Source: Coriobacteriales bacterium (GTDB taxonomy: Bacteria > Actinomycetota > Coriobacteriia > Coriobacteriales > UBA8131). From it: 10,381 nt of DNA. Each line of letters opens with the position of its first letter. Position 1 is the stretch's first letter. This document shows, in pieces, positions 1,078-9,651 of this stretch. The translations under genes and the position numbers were made by a program. The notes below the pieces were generated by a model. The model had not been told where the DNA came from and did no database searches. It saw only the letters and a list, made by a program, of their open reading frames with translations. The stretch covers positions 1 through 10,381 of the forward strand of contig JAIRTN010000120.1 in NCBI GenBank assembly GCA_031254905.1. The letters run 5' to 3'.

Positions 1078-1800
1078 GTGCTGACTACACGCGCAAATGG
1101 GCGCGAAGATGATGTGATGCGCCCGGTTGTGTTTACCCGCGATTATCTCAAGCACCCCTTTGGCTCTTGTTTGGTCGAATTTGGCGATACGAAGGTGCTT
1201 TGCGTCGCAAGCATCGAGGAGGGTGTTCCCGCGTGGCTCAAAGGCTCCGGCAAAGGCTGGGTGACGGCTGAGTATGCGATGCTCCCTGCCTCGGGTTCGC
1301 GGCGCTCGCGGCGTGAGATAAACGGCCAGAAGGGGCGCACTCATGAGATTCAGCGTCTCATCGGGCGCTCGTTGCGCTCGGCAGTCGATCTTGGCGCCCT
1401 TGGCGAGACAACCGTTACGATAGACTGCGACGTCATCCAAGCGGATGGCGGTACCCGCACCGCCTCGATATGCGGCGGGTGGCTTGCGCTTCATGACGCG
1501 CTTGTCGCATGGCGGAATGCCGGTAGGCTCAGAACCAACCCGGTTTTCGACCAAGTCGTTGCCGTCAGCGTTGGGCTTGTCGACGGCAAGGTGTTGCTCG
1601 ATTTGGATTATCGAGAGGACGCGCGTGCCGAAATCGACATGAACCTCGTCATGAACTCACAAGGCGAGTTCATCGAAGTGCAGGGGACAGGCGAGAGGGC
1701 AACCTTCGACCGCGCGCGTCTTGATGAAATGCTCGATAGGGGGATCGTGGGTTTGCAGGCTCTGCTTGCGGCCCAGCGGGTGGCTTTGGAACAGGCATAG
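1078..1800 (+). CDS. rph: Ribonuclease PH
   Basis: Phosphorolytic 3'-5' exoribonuclease that trims tRNA 3' ends, using phosphate and releasing nucleoside diphosphates; it works as a hexameric ring. At 240 aa it is full length for the family (E. coli about 238). Visible hallmarks are [11 protein letters not shown] (32-42), SIEEGVP (45-51), [11 protein letters not shown] (60-70) and the Arg-rich [16 protein letters not shown] (85-100). The phosphate-binding ADGGTRTAS (122-130) and the acidic [16 protein letters not shown] (174-189) with the catalytic Asp pair are also present. It starts with GTG behind AGGAGG. It is the second gene of the murI operon, and its TAG is followed after one base by the rdgB ATG, which implies translational coupling. 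Nothing suggests loss of activity. Confidence 0.97.
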
Positions 1801-1801
1801 C

Positions 1802-3130
1802 ATGACGGAAAACCACAACACCGTTCTTGTCGCGTCGAATAACGCGGGCAAGATTGCTGAGATAATCGAGAATCTCGAGTTGCCCGGCTGGCGCTTCTTA
1901 CCTCTCAACTCATTCGGCGCTGCGATTATGCCCGAGGAGACAGGGGCGACCTACGAGGAAAACGCGCGCATCAAGGCATGGGCGGCCCGCGAGTGGGCGG
2001 CCCGCGAGCATTCTTCCGTGTTGGCGACGCTCGCCGATGACTCCGGCCTTGAGGTTGATGCCTTGGGCGGGGCGCCGGGCGTCCGCTCGGCGCGCTACGG
2101 CGGCGAGCAGACCACCGATGTGCTCAACACCGCAAAACTGCTCGAGGAACTCAAGACTGTGCCCGATGAGGCTCGTCGGGCGCGCTTCGTCTGCTGCGTT
2201 GTCTACGTGGACACCGATGGTCACGAAATCGTTGCGCGCGGTAGCTGCGAGGGGCGCATCGCGCAGGCCCCGCGCGGCAAGGGCGGCTTTGGCTACGACC
2301 CGGTGTTCTTACCAGACGAAGTCGACGACGGCCGCACGATGGCCGAACTTTCCCCCGAGGAGAAGGACAAGATTTCGCACCGCGGTAAGGCCCTGCGTGC
2401 CCTGCGGGAGCAACTCGCCATCTGCTACGGGGCGCCCACAACAAAGGAGGAGCCCGTCCGCCTCGCCGCCTTTGACTTCGACGGCACCCTTCTCGAAGGG
2501 CATTCGCCCGTGCGCATGGTTCGCAGCCTCCTTCGCCGAAACATCATTCCGTACCGCGTCGCCCTTCAGGCGCTGTGGTGGGGGGTGCGCTATCGGCTGC
2601 GCATACCGGTTGAGCAAAAAGAGGTGCGCGAGCACATCTTCAGAAGTTTTTCGCATTTCCCCGCGGCCGAGGCCGACCAACTCATGTCCGACTTCTACCG
2701 GGCTGACCTGCGCCGCCGCCTGCGCCCTCGCGGCTTAGAGGCCGTCAAGAAGCATCGAGAAGCGGGGGAGCAGGTCGTCTTGGTAAGCGCTTCCTTCACC
2801 CCCATACTCAAGGAGGCCTCTCACGATTTGGGCGCCGACTGGTTCATCTGCACGCAGATGGAGGTCAAGGACGGCTACTACACCGGCAACGTGATGGGCC
2901 AGCCGCCCGAGGGAGCCCAAAAACTCGTCCAGCTTGCGGCATGGGCCGACGCGACCTACCACAAGGACGGCTGGGCGCTCGTGGCTGCCTACGGCGACCA
3001 CCGAAGCGACGAGCCGCTGCTTGCCGCCGCCCGCGAGGCAATCGCGGTCAACCCCGACAGCGGGCTTGAAAAGGCGGCACGACGCCACGGTTGGCGTATT
3101 CTCGACTGGAGTTTTGAGTGCAAACTTTGA
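1802..3130 (+). CDS. rdgB: RdgB-type ITP/XTP pyrophosphatase fused to a HAD-IB phosphatase
   Basis: A 442-aa two-domain protein. Residues 7-205 are a full RdgB/HAM1 pyrophosphatase, which hydrolyses dITP/XTP to monophosphates to keep deaminated purines out of DNA. Motifs are ASNNAGK (11-17), the metal-binding LADDSGLEVDALGGAPGVRS (78-97), GGFGYDPVF (161-169) and ISHRGKAL (191-198). A linker of about 15 residues leads to a HAD subfamily IB (SerB-like) phosphatase. It has nucleophile motif FDFDGTL (D225, D227), motif II VLVSAS (S329), motif III K374, and motif IV YGDHRSD (D399, D403), so all four catalytic motifs are present. The substrate of the HAD half is unknown; phosphomonoesters are typical. 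An open frame extends upstream to 1721 inside rph, but ATG 1802, one base after the rph stop, gives the family N-terminus. Oddities are a perfect ribosome-site sequence at the domain border and a 5-residue tandem duplication (60-69). Confidence 0.93.
   Translation: MTENHNTVLVASNNAGKIAEIIENLELPGWRFLPLNSFGAAIMPEETGATYEENARIKAWAAREWAAREHSSVLATLADDSGLEVDALGGAPGVRSARYGGEQTTDVLNTAKLLEELKTVPDEARRARFVCCVVYVDTDGHEIVARGSCEGRIAQAPRGKGGFGYDPVFLPDEVDDGRTMAELSPEEKDKISHRGKALRALREQLAICYGAPTTKEEPVRLAAFDFDGTLLEGHSPVRMVRSLLRRNIIPYRVALQALWWGVRYRLRIPVEQKEVREHIFRSFSHFPAAEADQLMSDFYRADLRRRLRPRGLEAVKKHREAGEQVVLVSASFTPILKEASHDLGADWFICTQMEVKDGYYTGNVMGQPPEGAQKLVQLAAWADATYHKDGWALVAAYGDHRSDEPLLAAAREAIAVNPDSGLEKAARRHGWRILDWSFECKL
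1979..2008 (+). repeat. 15-bp perfect tandem duplication inside rdgB
   Basis: The 15-mer TGGGCGGCCCGCGAG occurs twice with no gap (1979-1993 and 1994-2008). It is in frame and doubles WAARE (residues 60-64 and 65-69) in the helix between the ENA motif and the DDSG metal site. By my alignment the same interval is six residues longer here than in E. coli RdgB, so the duplication explains almost all of the excess. Confidence 0.9.
2443..2450 (+). promoter_or_regulatory. Relic or internal ribosome binding site at the RdgB/HAD domain border
   Basis: AAAGGAGG matches the anti-Shine-Dalgarno sequence almost fully. It sits in the linker codons (Thr214-Glu217), five bases before a GTC codon (Val219) that immediately precedes the HAD domain. 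No ATG, GTG or TTG in the HAD frame is nearby. It may be the remnant of the signal for a formerly separate HAD gene, or chance from AAG-GAG-GAG coding for Lys-Glu-Glu. Confidence 0.4.
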
Positions 3131-3263: not shown

Positions 3264-4829
3264 ATGAGTCAGGAACGTGAGCCACATAACGGTTTTGAGA
3301 AAAGCGCCGTGTTTTATCTTGAGGCCGCCCAAGCCGCGCTCGAAAGCGGCCAGTCCCGTTTGGCCATCCACCTATTTCGTGCGGCATACGAAATAGAAAC
3401 CACCTACAGTCCCCTTGTCTCGGGCAGCGTCCTCGAGGGCATGCGGAAGGCTTGGGACCTTGCCTTTGCGATGGGCGACCGCTCGATTGCGGAGTCCATT
3501 TTTGGCGACCTCGCGCCACACAACAGCCCTGAGGAAAACGAGAAGGCGACGATGCGCCTGCAGGCGCTCGCCTTCGACCAGCTTGAGGACATGGGCATCA
3601 CCGAGGACGACCTCGAAAGCATCGCGGGCATTATCTCCCGCGAGATGATTAGCTCCGATAACGAGAAACTCGTCGGTTCGCTCAAATCGGTGCTTGAGCA
3701 GATTGGCGTTTCCTTCGACGAGGACGAGGACATCCGAGCCTTCAGCGCGTCTGCCACAAACGAGGCGGGCGAGGCGGGCGAGGGCCTTGCCTCTCCCCCT
3801 GAGACCGCTCTTGCGAAAGACTCGTCGCTGCAGGCCGGCCTTGTGAGAATCGGCAAAGAACTCCGCGAGTCCGTCGAGCGGAGCAGGGAAGAAAACCAGC
3901 AGAGGCGCCTCGATTATCAGGCACTGTACGGCTACAGCCGCGCCCTTCAACGCATGCGCAGCTTCGGCTTCCTCTCCGCTGGTGATGAGGGCTATCGCAG
4001 TTTTATTGAGAGAAGTGCGGCCATGCATGGAGTTCCCCGACTCTCCCTGGACGGCACCTTCCTGTTCTCGGGGCCGACGAGAGAAGACGTGGCGCTGTTT
4101 GCCCACGCAACGGCGGGGGAAATCGGGTTTCCGGTGCTCCACGTATCCGTTGACCTCGACAAACAGGGCAATGGCACCATCAAGCTGGCGGGGCCCTTCA
4201 GGCGGGGCTTTTTTGGCAGTCCGCCTGACCTCATGGACATGGTGACACCCTGCACGGTGCTGATTGAGAATATCGACTATCTGCAGGAAATGTTCGACAA
4301 CGAGCAGCAGGCAATCAAGCGTAGCGGCGGTCGTTTCCGAGGCGTGGGAGGCCAGCCGGGCCGTTCGATGCAGCTTGAGATAACCGCCTATCTGCAGGCG
4401 CTGCGGCGCAAACCGGGAATCATCATCATGGCGACATCTCAGCAGGGGAGTGCCATTCGTACGCCTCTGCGCAATTTGCTTGGGGCTGTGCATGAGATAG
4501 AGGTGGCTGCGCCCTGCGAGGAGGAGCGGCTTGATGTTCTCATCAACTTTGCCAGCAAACACCCTTCCTTTGCAGAACTCGATATAGACCGTATCGCCTA
4601 TCTTTCCGAAGGGCTTTCCCGCAGCGACCTTATGTCCGCCGCTCACACGGCAGTAGAATCGGCGTACCGGGAATCCCTGCGTACCGGCAGGTATAATCGG
4701 GTGACGATGGGAGATGTCCTCATCCAACTCGCGCCTTTTATCAATCGCGACTCACCGTTTTATCAACAGGTGGAAGATGAGGCTGTTGCCCAGCTTGCCC
4801 ATGAACTTGAGAAAGATATGCCACAATAA
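3264..4829 (+). CDS. Degenerate FtsH-like AAA+ protein (predicted pseudo-ATPase) with TPR-like N-terminus
   Basis: A 521-aa protein, probably cytosolic, with no membrane segment or signal peptide. Residues 10-110 look like two TPR-type helical hairpins. Residues 152-187 are an acidic, low-complexity linker. A charged helix follows (193-236), then a AAA+ domain (about 262-490). The AAA+ part aligns with FtsH almost gap-free around the P-loop: 'SGP...ATAGE' (269-286) matches FtsH 'VGPPGTGKT...AVAGE', with Val276 and Ala277 replacing the Walker A Lys and Thr. Walker B is LIENID (333-338) instead of FIDEID. Sensor 1 is MATSQQ (389-394) instead of AATNRP, and the PGRFDR arginine fingers read NLLGAVHE. 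The lid helix GLSRSDLMSAAHTAVESA (450-467) clearly mirrors FtsH GFSGADL. No metalloprotease domain follows. It probably neither binds nor hydrolyses ATP normally. The role is unknown; a scaffold or adaptor is one inference. Confidence 0.85.
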   Translation: MSQEREPHNGFEKSAVFYLEAAQAALESGQSRLAIHLFRAAYEIETTYSPLVSGSVLEGMRKAWDLAFAMGDRSIAESIFGDLAPHNSPEENEKATMRLQALAFDQLEDMGITEDDLESIAGIISREMISSDNEKLVGSLKSVLEQIGVSFDEDEDIRAFSASATNEAGEAGEGLASPPETALAKDSSLQAGLVRIGKELRESVERSREENQQRRLDYQALYGYSRALQRMRSFGFLSAGDEGYRSFIERSAAMHGVPRLSLDGTFLFSGPTREDVALFAHATAGEIGFPVLHVSVDLDKQGNGTIKLAGPFRRGFFGSPPDLMDMVTPCTVLIENIDYLQEMFDNEQQAIKRSGGRFRGVGGQPGRSMQLEITAYLQALRRKPGIIIMATSQQGSAIRTPLRNLLGAVHEIEVAAPCEEERLDVLINFASKHPSFAELDIDRIAYLSEGLSRSDLMSAAHTAVESAYRESLRTGRYNRVTMGDVLIQLAPFINRDSPFYQQVEDEAVAQLAHELEKDMPQ

Positions 4830-4831
4830 CG

Positions 4832-4847
4832 GTAGCATATATGCTAC
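4832..4847. promoter_or_regulatory. 16-bp perfect palindrome, candidate operator for the Rrf2 regulator
   Basis: GTAGCATATATGCTAC is perfectly self-complementary and begins two bases after the preceding stop codon, 116 bases before the Rrf2 ATG. Its AT centre and the absence of a T tract argue against an intrinsic terminator. Rrf2 proteins are dimeric winged-helix factors that bind palindromes and often regulate themselves, so an operator is the leading reading. A possible -10 (TATGAT, 4883-4888) lies downstream with only a weak -35. Confidence 0.5.
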
Positions 4848-4963: not shown

Positions 4964-5407
4964 ATGGAGATTTCGCGGAGAACAGATTACGCAATTCGTC
5001 TTATCGCTGCGCTGCTGCTCAACGAGGGCGCACCGCTTTCCGTTCGCGAGGCGGCGAGCATGCAGGATGTGCCTTACGCCTTTGCGCGAAGCATTCAGCA
5101 CGACCTCGTGCATAGCGGGATTCTTACCTCAGTGCGAGGTGCTCATGGCGGCATGCTGCTCGCCGTAGACCCCGCCGAACTGACCCTTTATCGTCTTATC
5201 GAAGTTGTTCAGGGCCCGGTAAGTGTCGCCATCTGCACAAACGACAAGAATTGGTGTTCCCGCCAGCCGCGCTGTCAGTTCCACAGAGTGTGGGAGGGCG
5301 CGAACTCTCTTTTGAGGGAATACCTCACCTCCGTGACCATTCAGGAGCTTATCGAAGGTAAGTCCGCGCACCTGTCAACCAGCCTTGCCAGCTTCGCGGC
5401 AAAGTAA
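4964..5407 (+). CDS. Rrf2-family transcriptional regulator with IscR-type Fe-S ligands
   Basis: A 147-aa cytoplasmic regulator. The N-terminal winged helix begins with the family-typical MEISRRTDYAIRLIAALL and continues through the recognition region (VPYAFARSIQHDL, 36-48) and the wing (VRGAHGGMLLA, 57-67). The C-terminal half has C91, C98, C104 and H107, close to the C92/C98/C104/H107 ligands of IscR, so it probably binds a [2Fe-2S] or [4Fe-4S] cluster. It may sense iron-sulfur status, oxygen or nitric oxide. The ATG at 4964 has AAGGA six bases upstream (4953-4957). A palindrome lies 116 bp upstream. It is followed by a MutY-like gene after 37 bp, probably co-transcribed. The exact subfamily (IscR, NsrR, RsrR or other) cannot be settled from sequence alone. 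Confidence 0.92.
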   Translation: MEISRRTDYAIRLIAALLLNEGAPLSVREAASMQDVPYAFARSIQHDLVHSGILTSVRGAHGGMLLAVDPAELTLYRLIEVVQGPVSVAICTNDKNWCSRQPRCQFHRVWEGANSLLREYLTSVTIQELIEGKSAHLSTSLASFAAK

Positions 5408-5434
5408 TACACCCAAAGGCGCTCGTCGCGGCGC

Positions 5435-5439
5435 GGAGG
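5435..5439 (+). promoter_or_regulatory. Ribosome binding site choosing a TTG start for the MutY-like gene
   Basis: GGAGG lies five bases before a TTG at 5445. The longer open frame begins with a TTG at 5385 that overlaps the Rrf2 gene and has no ribosome site. The 5445 start also gives the N-terminal length seen in MutY, about 25 residues before the LPWR motif. Confidence 0.6.
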
Positions 5440-5444
5440 ACGCC

Positions 5445-6290
5445 TTGCAGCGCGAAACGGCCGCCTCGTTCATCGCAACGGTGTGGCGCGAAGGCAGGCG
5501 CCTGTATCGCGACCTGCCGTGGCGCAACCTCGATGATTCATACGCCATTCTCACGAGCGAAATCATGCTGCAACAGACGCAGGTATCGCGGGTACTCGGA
5601 TACTGGGAGCGCTGGATGCTGGCCTTCCCAACGGTCGACGCCTTAGCGTCCGCCTCTCTAAGCGACGTGCTCGAACGCTGGCAGGGCTTGGGTTATCACC
5701 GTCGAGCACTTGCCTTCAAACGCGCGGCCGAGATATGCTCAAGGCGTTTTCGGGGCCAAATACCGCGCGAATATCAAGAACTGCTCGGCCTGCCCGGGGT
5801 GGGGCCGGCAACGGCCGCGGGCGTTTGCGTCTTTGCCTATGGAGAGCCGCAGGTCTATCTGGAGACAAATGTGCGGACGGTATTCCTCCATCATTTTTTT
5901 GAGGGCCGCGAGCAGGTCTCGGATAGCGAAATTATTCCCCTCGTTGAGGCAACCTGCGATAACGATGACCCTCGGAACTGGTATTACGCCCTGCTCGACT
6001 ACGGAAGTCATCTCAAAAGCATAATGTTGAACCCCTCGCGGCGCTCCCGTCATCACGTGCGGCAGTCGCCCTTTGAGGGATCCTTGCGCCAAAAACGTGC
6101 GGAACTGCTCAGGCTCATCTTGGCACGGCCCAACAGCGACACCGAGGCGCTTGCCGCCGCGCTCAACCACCTTGAGCGCTTGGCCGGGCGCGGGGCGACG
6201 GATGCTGCAGAAATCGAAGCCATACTCGCAACCCTCGAACAAGAGGGCTTCTTAACGCGCCGCGGTGACACATGGCGCATCAGGGGATAG
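5445..6290 (+). CDS. MutY-like HhH-GPD DNA glycosylase lacking the Fe-S cluster and 8-oxoG domain
   Basis: A 281-aa HhH-GPD base-excision enzyme, closest by eye to the catalytic domain of A/G-specific adenine glycosylase. Hallmarks are DLPWR (23-27), the catalytic helix SEIMLQQTQV with E39, RWQGLGYHRRA (78-88) and the helix-hairpin-helix LPGVGPATAAG (116-126). Alanine replaces the EndoIII lyase lysine. MutY's catalytic Asp region (LDGNV) reads LETNV here, with E140 in place of Asp. After LLDYG (183-187), where MutY has the four-cysteine [4Fe-4S] loop, there are no cysteines. The NUDIX-like C-terminal domain that reads 8-oxoG is also missing; a short helical tail with a possible winged-helix look (215-281) replaces it. 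It may act on adenine mispairs or on another lesion. It follows the Rrf2 gene by 37 bp, and its 3' end overlaps the convergent LuxR-type gene by 11 bp. Confidence 0.88.
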   Translation: MQRETAASFIATVWREGRRLYRDLPWRNLDDSYAILTSEIMLQQTQVSRVLGYWERWMLAFPTVDALASASLSDVLERWQGLGYHRRALAFKRAAEICSRRFRGQIPREYQELLGLPGVGPATAAGVCVFAYGEPQVYLETNVRTVFLHHFFEGREQVSDSEIIPLVEATCDNDDPRNWYYALLDYGSHLKSIMLNPSRRSRHHVRQSPFEGSLRQKRAELLRLILARPNSDTEALAAALNHLERLAGRGATDAAEIEAILATLEQEGFLTRRGDTWRIRG

Positions 6291-7788
6291 GGAGAGGTGT
6301 CTCTTCCTGATTTGTTTGTTCGCCACCAATTACCATATCCAGTAACTCTTGGTTCTTATGGATACCGAGTTTCTGATAGATACGATAGCAGTGAGTTTTG
6401 AATGTCCCCTCTGATATGACAAGCTCGTTGGCGATATAGGGGCCGCTGCGACCCATGGCGAGGAAGCCGATGATTTCTTCTTCGCGTGGAGTTAGGCCAT
6501 GCAGGGCTGCCAGATTGTGACAACGCTCAAGAATCATGCTACGCAGGCCGGCAGAGCTCTCTTTGAAATAGTCCATGGCGCTTAGAGTCTGGGCATAACG
6601 CGACAAAGCTAATACAGTACCGACAATTATAATACCCGTAAAAATCCCTACAATCGCTTCGATTGGAATCGAGAGGTGAGTGAGCCAGTTCTCTGCGAGA
6701 GTGCCTAAGAGCATGCTGAGTGTCCAAGCGGTGAAGATAACAGCCTTTTCGCTGAAAGCTATTAATGTGTCTCGCATGCCGAAGATCATGCGATAGTTAG
6801 AAATCTGCACCGAGGTAAGCACAATGAAGCAGAGCCAAGAAGAAGCAATGGCAATAGGTATGAGGATGTTGAGGCTAGACCCGGCGAGTAGGAGAAAGAA
6901 TGAGGCGATAATGGCGAGTGGAAGGCAGGGTAGCAAATAGGCTGCAATTGGCAAGGTTTTCTGAGAGAGACTGAAAATGGCAATGAAAACCAACAGTATT
7001 GCACCGAATACGCCGCAAAGGCCCTGTGTCAAGGGGCTAATAACGGTGAGGAAACCTTTCGCCTGCGCCATGCTGATAATAAAGCCGATGCCCAATCCGT
7101 AGAGCAAGCGAGTACTCCAAAAGGCGCGCCATTGCGCAGGGCGCGCGGTTCGAGTTGATAGTACGACTCCGAAGCCTTTGTCCTTTATGAGCAGCGAACA
7201 GAGCGCGGAGAATGCGAGAAGAAGACAATAGAGAATGGCGATGAGGAAGGCGGGTAGGGCAACAATAAAAAGAAACATACCAGCAGAAAGAAACACAGTA
7301 GTGCCAACTACGCCTATCGAGTCTCTGATTCCCGTCATAGCAAAGCGCAAGCTCCATACTTGCATTAGGATCCCTGCTCCGATGCCTTGTGTCATATTGG
7401 ATAGAACCACAAAATAGGTGCTGTTTGCCGCGCTATTCAGATAACAGATCGACATAAGAGCGCAGGAACAGAGCGAGAATGCGGTAGCGGCGACAGTAAG
7501 GGCGGTAAGGGCCTTTTGTGATAGGGTTTTTCTGAATATCAAGAAAACAAACGAAACAGAAAAGAAACAAAACAAGGTGCTCACCCAAGCTGTGGAGAAA
7601 TTTACAAAATGGTTGAGCCCCGAAAATCCTCCTAGTTGCAGCAAGCATTCTGTCCAGTAGAAGGACGAGCCAAGCGACACCAAACCATTGCGGATTGTCC
7701 TGTTCAAAATCCCTCTTTTATATCGAGTCACGCTAAGTTCTTTCTTCCGCGCAACAGTATAGTCTAGGCCCCGATGAGCGGCAATCAT
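6280..7788 (-). CDS. Polytopic membrane LuxR-type transcriptional regulator (about 12 TM plus HTH)
   Basis: A 502-aa membrane protein. Roughly twelve hydrophobic segments fill residues 35-396 in an MFS-like arrangement with a longer cytoplasmic stretch near 202-226. A short linker leads to a C-terminal LuxR/GerE helix-turn-helix (about 429-489), with the signature LTPREEEIIGFLAMGRS (432-448) and recognition helix VISEGTFKTHCYRIYQKLGI (457-476). No receiver or autoinducer domain is present, so the membrane part probably senses a ligand. Such regulators are numerous in Eggerthella and relatives, usually beside the redox enzyme they control. This one is divergent from a Tat flavoprotein. ATG 7788 has no ribosome site but does have CATACT six bases upstream, suggesting a leaderless transcript; GTG at 7731 is an alternative start. 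Base composition is more AT-rich than the genes to its left. Confidence 0.92.
   Translation of the reverse strand: MIAAHRGLDYTVARKKELSVTRYKRGILNRTIRNGLVSLGSSFYWTECLLQLGGFSGLNHFVNFSTAWVSTLFCFFSVSFVFLIFRKTLSQKALTALTVAATAFSLCSCALMSICYLNSAANSTYFVVLSNMTQGIGAGILMQVWSLRFAMTGIRDSIGVVGTTVFLSAGMFLFIVALPAFLIAILYCLLLAFSALCSLLIKDKGFGVVLSTRTARPAQWRAFWSTRLLYGLGIGFIISMAQAKGFLTVISPLTQGLCGVFGAILLVFIAIFSLSQKTLPIAAYLLPCLPLAIIASFFLLLAGSSLNILIPIAIASSWLCFIVLTSVQISNYRMIFGMRDTLIAFSEKAVIFTAWTLSMLLGTLAENWLTHLSIPIEAIVGIFTGIIIVGTVLALSRYAQTLSAMDYFKESSAGLRSMILERCHNLAALHGLTPREEEIIGFLAMGRSGPYIANELVISEGTFKTHCYRIYQKLGIHKNQELLDMVIGGEQTNQEETPLPIP
6290..6307 (+). terminator. Weak predicted terminator of the Rrf2-mutY-like unit
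   Basis: GGGAGAG (6290-6296) pairs with CTCTTCC (6301-6307) around a GTGT loop. One pair is G-T, and the stem can extend outward by one or two pairs. A T-rich run, TGATTTGTTTGTT, follows. It begins at the stop codon of the + strand gene and lies inside the 3' end of the convergent LuxR-type gene. The T tract is interrupted, so efficiency is uncertain. Confidence 0.4.
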
Positions 7789-7877: not shown

Positions 7878-7950
7878 TCCTTTGGGTGTCTACGAGCACT
7901 CATGGGATGTTGAGTCAGAATATGTCAAAATTCAGGAAAGAGAGGGAAAC

Positions 7951-9651
7951 ATGAGCGACAAGACAGAGGTGCACGCAGGAGTTTCAAGGAGGGAATTTCT
8001 TAAAGGAACTGTTTTGGCGACCGCCGCTTCAACAGGGGTGTTTGCGTTGTCGGGTTGTGATGCGCCGTCAGCCCAAGCATCTGCTAAGGAAACGTATCTA
8101 CCGGAGGCGTGGGATCAGGAAACTGACATACTGGTGGTCGGATGCGGAGGAGCAGGCATCGCTGCTGGAATTACGGCGAAAACTGAGGAACTGGGAGAGG
8201 TATTACTTCTCGAGGCCGCCCCGCAGGGTTATGAAGGGGGCAATACACGCGTAAGCGCTCAGGTTATCTTTATCCCTGATAATGTTGAAGGTGCTATTAG
8301 GTATCAGAGAAATCTCAATGGTCCTCATGTTGTGGAGGAAGAACTGATACGTTCGTGGGCTGAAAATATTTGTGAAAATCTTGATTGGTTCAAACAGATT
8401 GGGGTTGAAGCCAACGAGTCCACCTTCTTCTCTCCGGAATGGCCAGATGTTGAAGGATCCGAGCATTGCAAAACCTATCTTGTTGGAGAAGGTATGGGTA
8501 AGGCGCAACTCTGGGATGCCTTGGCTGAGGTAGCTAACGATCTGGGTGTAACGATTCGGCATGATACCCGTGTCATTGAGCTTGTGTATGAACCACAGAC
8601 GCGAGAAGTACTTGGTGTTAAAGCGACAACTCCCTCTGGCGAGCAGCACATTAAGGCTCGCAAGGGCGTTGTCCTTGCATGTGGTGGTTTTGAGAATGAT
8701 CCTGAAATGATAAGGAACTATTATCAGATCGGTTATCACGATACGCGTCCGCTTGGCACTCCTTACAACAAAGGAGATGGTATCAGGATGGCACAAAGCG
8801 TCGGTGCCGAGCTTTGGCATATGAACAATTTTGCCAATTCTGGATTTGGCGCCCAAGCAGGCGGTCTTGACAATGTCTGTGTCTCGACTCTTTCTTTACG
8901 CAACAAGGATTACATCTATGTTGCTTCCGATGGTAGACGTTTTATGTATGAAGAGACAGTAGGGCTCGCAAGGCATGGCAAATATCTCTACAATGGCGCA
9001 TCGACCAATCTGCGGCAACCAATTCCCATCTATGCCGTTTTTGGAAGTAAGACTTTTGACGGTGATTGCATTGTTCAAGAGTCTTTTGCTGCATGGCTGT
9101 CCATAATGAAAGAATTGTTGGGAACAACCAATCAGGCATATCTTGACGCGGGAGTTATTGTTAAAGGAGATACGCCCGAAGATTTGGCAAATAAAATAGG
9201 AGTCAATTCGAATACTCTCAAAGAGACGATCGAATCCTACAATGCCAATGCCGCAGCAGGACAAGATCCTGTGTTCGGTCGAGGAACCGACGTATATTCT
9301 GCATTCAATTATGGAGCTATGGAAGAAGCAGGAAAACAAGGTCAGAGCACGATTGATTCAGCACCGGAAAACAAGCCGAGCATTGCTGCATTCGCTCTTG
9401 AGCCACTTGTGGCGCCCTATTACGCCATTCAGTTACACATCCAAACGCTCAACACGCAGGGCGGTCCGCGTAGAGGCCTCGAAGGTGAGGTGCTTGATAC
9501 CAAGGGAAAACCGATTCCCCGTCTCTATGCTGCTGGTGAACTCGGCTCCATTTACTCCTATAATTACAACGGAGGCGGAAACGTGAGCGAGGCGCTTTCC
9601 TCCGGGCGTCTGGCCGCGCGCTCTATAGGCAAGCTGGAGTCTTGGGAATAG
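7951..9651 (+). CDS. Tat-exported FAD-dependent oxidoreductase of the fumarate reductase/KstD-like flavoprotein family, predicted lipoprotein
   Basis: A 566-aa flavoprotein acting outside the cytoplasmic membrane. The signal peptide has the twin-arginine motif SRREFLK (12-18) and a hydrophobic stretch. It ends in a lipobox LSGC with C36, suggesting Tat export followed by lipidation. The mature part has a Rossmann FAD site, DILVVGCGGAG (59-69), then GGNTRVSAQ (96-104) and DGRRFMYEE (327-335). The C-terminal flavin closure is YAAGELGS...GGGNVSEA (526-548). It has no haem or FMN-binding domain, so electrons must come from a separate partner not seen here. Asn replaces the Arg of the fumarate reductase NRLGGN motif, so fumarate is an unlikely substrate and the true one is unknown. 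ATG 7951 is preferred, with GAGGG four bases upstream and the Tat motif at the expected distance; a longer frame opens at 7882. Transcribed away from the LuxR-type regulator. Confidence 0.92.
   Translation: MSDKTEVHAGVSRREFLKGTVLATAASTGVFALSGCDAPSAQASAKETYLPEAWDQETDILVVGCGGAGIAAGITAKTEELGEVLLLEAAPQGYEGGNTRVSAQVIFIPDNVEGAIRYQRNLNGPHVVEEELIRSWAENICENLDWFKQIGVEANESTFFSPEWPDVEGSEHCKTYLVGEGMGKAQLWDALAEVANDLGVTIRHDTRVIELVYEPQTREVLGVKATTPSGEQHIKARKGVVLACGGFENDPEMIRNYYQIGYHDTRPLGTPYNKGDGIRMAQSVGAELWHMNNFANSGFGAQAGGLDNVCVSTLSLRNKDYIYVASDGRRFMYEETVGLARHGKYLYNGASTNLRQPIPIYAVFGSKTFDGDCIVQESFAAWLSIMKELLGTTNQAYLDAGVIVKGDTPEDLANKIGVNSNTLKETIESYNANAAAGQDPVFGRGTDVYSAFNYGAMEEAGKQGQSTIDSAPENKPSIAAFALEPLVAPYYAIQLHIQTLNTQGGPRRGLEGEVLDTKGKPIPRLYAAGELGSIYSYNYNGGGNVSEALSSGRLAARSIGKLESWE

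What the first reader, a model, noticed from the sequence alone, without database searches (positions are those of the whole stretch)
3264..4829. FtsH-like AAA+ domain with every ATP-handling motif lost
The domain at residues 262-490 aligns with FtsH through P-loop, Walker B, sensor 1 and lid, so homology is clear. The Walker A Lys/Thr are Val276/Ala277, the Walker B DE is E335/N336, the sensor-1 Asn is S392 and the arginine fingers are gone. The lid motif GLSRSDL and the core hydrophobic pattern are kept. Coordinated loss of all catalytic residues with an intact fold and full-length frame suggests selection for a non-catalytic role, possibly as a scaffold, adaptor or inactive ring subunit, and not decay. 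I know of no described function for this architecture.
Basis: partly seen in the sequence, partly recalled or inferred. Interest (0 to 1): 0.8.

Follow-up and report, generated by a model that had tools for sequence, protein, structure and literature searches.

The report
Dead ATPase scaffold of gut Coriobacteria
The gene encodes a protein shaped like an ATP-driven molecular motor but with its ATP-handling parts all replaced, and related bacteria have kept it that way, so it probably works as a motor-shaped scaffold and not as a motor.

The parts
3264..4829 (+). pseudo-AAA+ gene, 521 aa plus stop
   Evidence: homologues
3297..3701 (+). N-terminal helical TPR-like domain, residues 12-146 (seven helices; the last two at low confidence)
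3702..3905 (+). linker, residues 147-214, low confidence and probably disordered, with a helix at its end; length varies between homologues
   Evidence: pLDDT 32-57 in the blocks of residues 151-210; alignment
3906..4517 (+). AAA+-like core, residues 215-418
4071..4094 (+). former Walker A, residues 270-277 GPTREDVA (GPPGCGKT in L086)
4086..4088 (+). D275, acidic in 252 of 252 family rows
4134..4190 (+). beta hairpin, residues 291-309, predicted where strand 2 and pore loop 1 lie in AAA+ motors; no long helix follows before strand 330-335
   Evidence: secondary structure of the model; alignment
4251..4277 (+). former Walker B, residues 330-338 CTVLIENID (E335/N336 for D/E)
4419..4442 (+). former sensor 1, residues 386-393 IIIMATSQ
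4467..4496 (+). former arginine-finger segment, residues 402-411
4518..4826 (+). C-terminal helical lid, residues 419-521
4620..4622 (+). R453, Arg in 254 of 256 family rows, in place of the Gly of GAD
1721..3130 (+). upstream neighbour: RdgB/HAM1 joined to a HAD-IB phosphatase in one ORF; the HAD part is the conserved neighbour
4964..5407 (+). downstream neighbour: Rrf2-family regulator
5385..6290 (+). downstream neighbour: MutY-like HhH-GPD glycosylase

Best explanation
A soluble, ATP-independent scaffold descended from a TPR-plus-AAA+ motor. SHOWN by sequence and prediction: classical AAA+ core and lid with the nucleotide-handling motifs replaced across the family, under purifying selection. 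INFERRED: the P-loop acid (D275) and the lid Arg (R453, where GAD has Gly) form an internal salt bridge that takes the place of ATP in joining core to lid, so the domain is held in one closed shape. INFERRED: this rigid domain and the TPR-like N-domain each bind a partner protein; the partner is unknown.
Against: No binding data. Two rows have Pro at 453 while keeping D275, so the pair is not strictly coupled. The TPR assignment lies within the noise band for helical models. 252 of 396 genomes of the class gave no match (the search can miss divergent copies), so the gene seems dispensable in some lineages. Six of the 16 dN/dS pairs have dS of about 1.5 or more or saturated, where the ratio is rough.
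Confidence: 0.6

Rival explanations
1. Inactive subunit of a mixed AAA+ ring, for example regulating FtsH, apparently the only classical AAA+ in most member genomes checked.
For: Classical-clade fold. Mixed rings with non-catalytic members are proposed or known elsewhere (LAP1-Torsin, PMC4358337, abstract read; FtsHi complexes, PMC8197885, passages and section 10 read). One strong CDC48-profile hit of FtsH size in 10 of 12 genomes (identity as FtsH inferred from size).
Against: Arg-finger columns lack Arg in 245 or more of 256 rows (11 of the 265 rows have Arg at any of the three), so it is unlikely to complete a neighbour's active site as LAP1 is proposed to do. Pore loop 1 and helix 2 region predicted remodelled. 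No membrane segment, while FtsH is membrane-bound.
Confidence: 0.12
2. Accessory factor of the neighbouring MutY-like glycosylase or of the Rrf2 regulator: a DNA-repair or redox-regulation adaptor.
For: HAD upstream in 63 of 74, Rrf2 downstream in 51 of 76 and MutY-like downstream in 32 of 36 loci with enough flank, also in members about 25% identical. In many divergent members the stop lies 0-17 bases from, or overlaps, the next start.
Against: In 7 of 16 loci from genomes without a match HAD still lies next to Rrf2 or MutY, with an empty slot in 6. Several members have MutY but no Rrf2 detected downstream. In the window's clade a TATGCTA-like element before Rrf2 may be its own promoter (my reading; the consensus scan found no promoter-like site there).
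Confidence: 0.15
3. The remodelled pocket binds another ligand, or a nucleotide in a new way, and the protein is a sensor.
For: Pocket residues 273-275 (R-E-D) and 335/336 (E, then D or N) are strongly conserved, as in a binding site.
Against: Two acids in the former P-loop should repel phosphates (inference); the conservation is explained equally well by packing.
Confidence: 0.1
4. A decaying gene or sequencing artefact.
For: All ATP motifs are lost; one genome holds a 252-aa ORF of unclear kinship in the slot (L117).
Against: Broad homologue set (899 at E <= 0.001, of which the 120 listed all have E below 1e-186), open frames, dN/dS 0.12-0.31.
Confidence: 0.02

Closest known systems
Classical-clade AAA+ ATPases (p97/CDC48, FtsH, PAN)
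   Same: Core and helical lid fold; residues such as E286, P417 and R422 that the family and L086 share
   Different: Walker A, Walker B, sensor 1, Arg fingers and the GAD motif replaced; helix 2 and pore loop 1 predicted replaced by a hairpin
LAP1/LULL1, AAA+-like Torsin activators
   Same: AAA+ fold without canonical nucleotide-binding motifs (PMC4358337, abstract)
   Different: LAP1 keeps an Arg finger (same abstract); this family does not. This family keeps a lid domain (that LAP1 lacks one is recalled)
FtsHi proteins of chloroplasts
   Same: FtsH relatives that lost one activity yet matter in a complex (PMC8197885, passages and section 10)
   Different: There the protease motif is lost and the AAA+ domain is described as intact (section 10): the opposite loss
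Intact AAA+ protein L086 of another genome of the class
   Same: AAA+ domain matches the family profile (5.5e-23); its N-terminal region aligns to the family N-domain with score 29.5, against at most 15.2 in 30 shuffles and 18.4 in 120 other ORFs
   Different: Intact ATP motifs; no HAD, Rrf2 or MutY neighbour detected. PADLOC's best match for it is IetA (4.1e-38), NCBIfam's is CDC48 (4.7e-57, below cut-off)

Membership tests
Classical AAA+ ATPase | Walker A GxxxxGK[T/S] | tested here: not met
   GPTREDVA; no K among 252 rows
Classical AAA+ ATPase | Walker B DE | tested here: not met
   EN here; no E at 336 among 256 rows
Classical AAA+ ATPase | Sensor 1 Asn and Arg fingers | tested here: not met
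   Q393, no Asn at 392/393 among 256 rows; Arg at 404/407/410 in 2, 0 and 10 of 256
Classical AAA+ ATPase | alpha/beta core plus helical lid fold | tested here: met
   predicted model
Classical AAA+ ATPase | pore loop 1 and helix 2 | tested here: inconclusive
   model shows a hairpin and no long helix there, but pLDDT is 64 in block 311-320
FtsH protease | M41 zinc-protease domain and membrane anchor | tested here: not met
   no M41 match in the Pfam lists; no hydrophobic segment
LAP1/LULL1-type activator | AAA+ fold lacking nucleotide motifs | tested here: met
LAP1/LULL1-type activator | retained Arg finger | tested here: not met
TPR protein | helical-pair repeat domain | tested here: inconclusive
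Ribonucleotide reductase alpha subunit (database name) | ribonucleotide reductase catalytic domain | tested here: not met
   no such Pfam match in 7 of the 8 listed orthologues so named or in the 32 members of A2

The most novel reading that the evidence does not exclude
A bacterial AAA+ motor turned, probably before the radiation of an order-level group, into an ATP-free structural module: a P-loop acid and a lid Arg replace the nucleotide as an internal lock, and the module is joined to a TPR-like domain to make a scaffold conserved in gut Coriobacteriia.
Probability: 0.35. Interest if true: 0.7.

Novelty: new variant of a known kind. Interest (0 to 1): 0.55.

Why it matters
The pseudo-AAA+ proteins that I know of (recalled, apart from the two papers cited) are mostly eukaryotic partners of active motors. 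A soluble bacterial family that lost both sides of the ATP site but fixed a new acid-Arg pair would show how a motor fold can be frozen into a scaffold, and the lock is directly testable. Orthologues in Gordonibacter, Raoultibacter and Arabiibacter carry the public name 'ribonucleotide reductase subunit alpha', which domain searches do not support.

Tried and rejected
Recent decay: rejected. Membrane FtsH pseudo-protease: rejected, no M41 match and no membrane segment. RNR alpha: rejected. Defence gene: no PADLOC match at E <= 0.1 for P0001 or L050. RNA element: no Rfam match at gathering scores in the window. Strict partnership with MutY: weakened by loci without the gene that keep the neighbours. 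The 252-aa ORF in the slot of L117 as a shrunken homologue: hhalign score 24.7 against at most 16.3 in 10 shuffles and 19.1 in 25 other ORFs, but probability only 4.5%; undecided. A rubrerythrin-like ORF downstream of MutY matched the profile weakly (0.017) and was dismissed as chance. The L086 N-domain match has hhalign probability 39.7%, and its controls were not chosen to be TPR proteins. Literature: the listings showed no description of this family; I saw listings only, and subscription papers are not held.

Limits of counts. Rows are sequences, not independent events, and include near-duplicates. (53 and 57 proteins) include the query. Of the 899 proteins only 120 were listed; the rest were not seen and may include ordinary AAA+ proteins. 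In one search, two of the 86 genomes (G028, G048) have weak matches that look like ordinary AAA+ proteins. In one search, 15 of the 144 have weak matches (E from 1e-19 to 2e-4), leaving 129 of 396. In some searches the 265 rows come from 259 proteins (L086 set apart); 252 to 256 have a letter at the tested columns. In one search loci with short flanks, identical proteins and L086 were dropped, neighbours were sought by BLAST from the window's proteins only, and the window itself is not counted. In one search, 19 of 20 genomes match the MutY-like query, but only 16 strongly (E <= 5.4e-53); those 16 were fetched. The tree holds 17 chosen members, without the most divergent ones (L097-L100), and 9 active rows out of 13 loci offered, three of them near-identical FtsH.

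Full report

WHAT IS LOST. Against the intact relative L086 (GPPGCGKT, FDEID, ATTN, RPGRFSR, GLTGAD) the window has GPTREDVA, IENID, ATSQ, NLLGAVH and GLSRSD. The region of pore loop 1 and helix 2 is predicted as a beta hairpin (strands 291-298 and 304-309), with no long helix before strand 330-335; pLDDT falls to 64 in residues 311-320.

IT IS A FAMILY TRAIT. One protein search gives 53 proteins, the query included; its profile gives 57; a broader profile gives 899, of which 120 were listed. In genomes: 86 of 197 of one order and 144 of 396 of the class, 129 of them with E below 1e-25. Among aligned family rows, 0 of 252 have the Walker A Lys, 0 of 256 have Glu at the Walker B catalytic position, and 0 of 256 have Asn at 392 or 393. 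Position 275 is D in 250 and E in 2; position 453 is Arg in 254 of 256, the other two being Pro; acid and Arg occur together in 250 of 252. A tree of 17 pseudo and 9 active AAA domains puts all pseudo rows on one side of a branch with 100/100 support, in keeping with a single loss; the root was not tested. Pairwise dN/dS (Nei-Gojobori) is 0.12-0.31 for 15 pairs, the 16th being saturated.

ORIGIN. L086, in another genome of the class, has intact motifs and an N-terminal region that aligns to the family's N-domain above shuffles and other ORFs, at an hhalign probability of only 39.7%. It is 434 aa, with no HAD, Rrf2 or MutY neighbour detected. It may represent the ancestral active type. In 61 genomes of its order the next best are G262 (3.9e-72, 44% identity over residues 24-373) and G226 (6.7e-54, AAA part); the rest with matches look like FtsH by size. 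Of 296 genomes of the phylum, 3 (its own included) hold a match at E <= 1e-52.

NEIGHBOURHOOD. The order HAD - pseudo-AAA - (Rrf2) - MutY-like holds in members of about 25% identity: HAD 63 of 74, Rrf2 51 of 76, MutY 32 of 36 loci with enough flank; the window's rph gene upstream is shared by 3 of 39. From 20 genomes without a match, the 16 loci with a strong MutY-like hit were fetched. In 7 of the 16 HAD lies just before Rrf2 or MutY, in six with an empty slot and in one (L117) with an unplaced 252-aa ORF; in the other 9 HAD was not found next to them. The block therefore exists without this gene.

MECHANISM. In an active AAA+ the nucleotide bridges P-loop and lid (established knowledge). Here the P-loop carries an acid where Gly stood and the lid carries an almost invariant Arg where the Gly of GAD stood. 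The simplest reading is an internal ionic bridge that fixes the closed shape without ATP. This is inference: I had no coordinates, and the two Pro exceptions show that it is not absolute. With no ATP cycle, no Arg finger and probably no pore loop, motor or trans-activator functions are unlikely; a binding scaffold is most likely.

NAMES. Eight of the 120 listed proteins, from Gordonibacter, Raoultibacter and Arabiibacter, are called 'ribonucleotide reductase subunit alpha'. Seven of the eight were scanned and show no such domain.

VERDICT. Real, family-wide, under selection, with a function that is unknown but constrained: a new variant of a known kind (pseudo-AAA+).

Noticed in passing
window 5385-6290 and homologues in fetched loci: The MutY-like glycosylases lack the C-x6-C-x2-C-x5-C Fe-S motif (0 of 92), and all 78 distinct ones read E-T-N where MutY has its catalytic Asp (that position is recalled). 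'Clusterless' MutYs are mentioned in PMC11078426 (passages read).
   Followed up: partly
window 4832-4847: Perfect 16-bp palindrome GTAGCATATATGCTAC right after the stop; its right half continues as TATGCTACACT, and TATGCTA(A/C)ACT stands at the same place in L001, L011 and L013, TATGTTA(A/C)ACT in L012, L023 and L032. Perhaps a promoter or operator of Rrf2; the scan found no promoter-like site there.
   Followed up: partly
L117:6060-6818 (-): A 252-aa ORF sits in the pseudo-AAA slot between HAD and Rrf2 in a genome with no family match; weak profile similarity around the sensor-1 strand.
   Followed up: partly
window 6280-7788 (-): 502-aa protein with a long hydrophobic N-terminal part and a C-terminal LuxR-type DNA-binding domain, next to a FAD-binding protein with a possible Tat signal at 7882-9651.
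   Followed up: no
L108-L110, L112-L121: An ORF that reads like rubrerythrin (motif search; three sequences read) lies near the MutY-like gene in 13 of the 16 loci without the pseudo-AAA.
   Followed up: partly
window 1721-3130: RdgB/HAM1 pyrophosphatase and HAD-IB phosphatase in one ORF; the HAD part stands alone in several more distant loci.
   Followed up: partly
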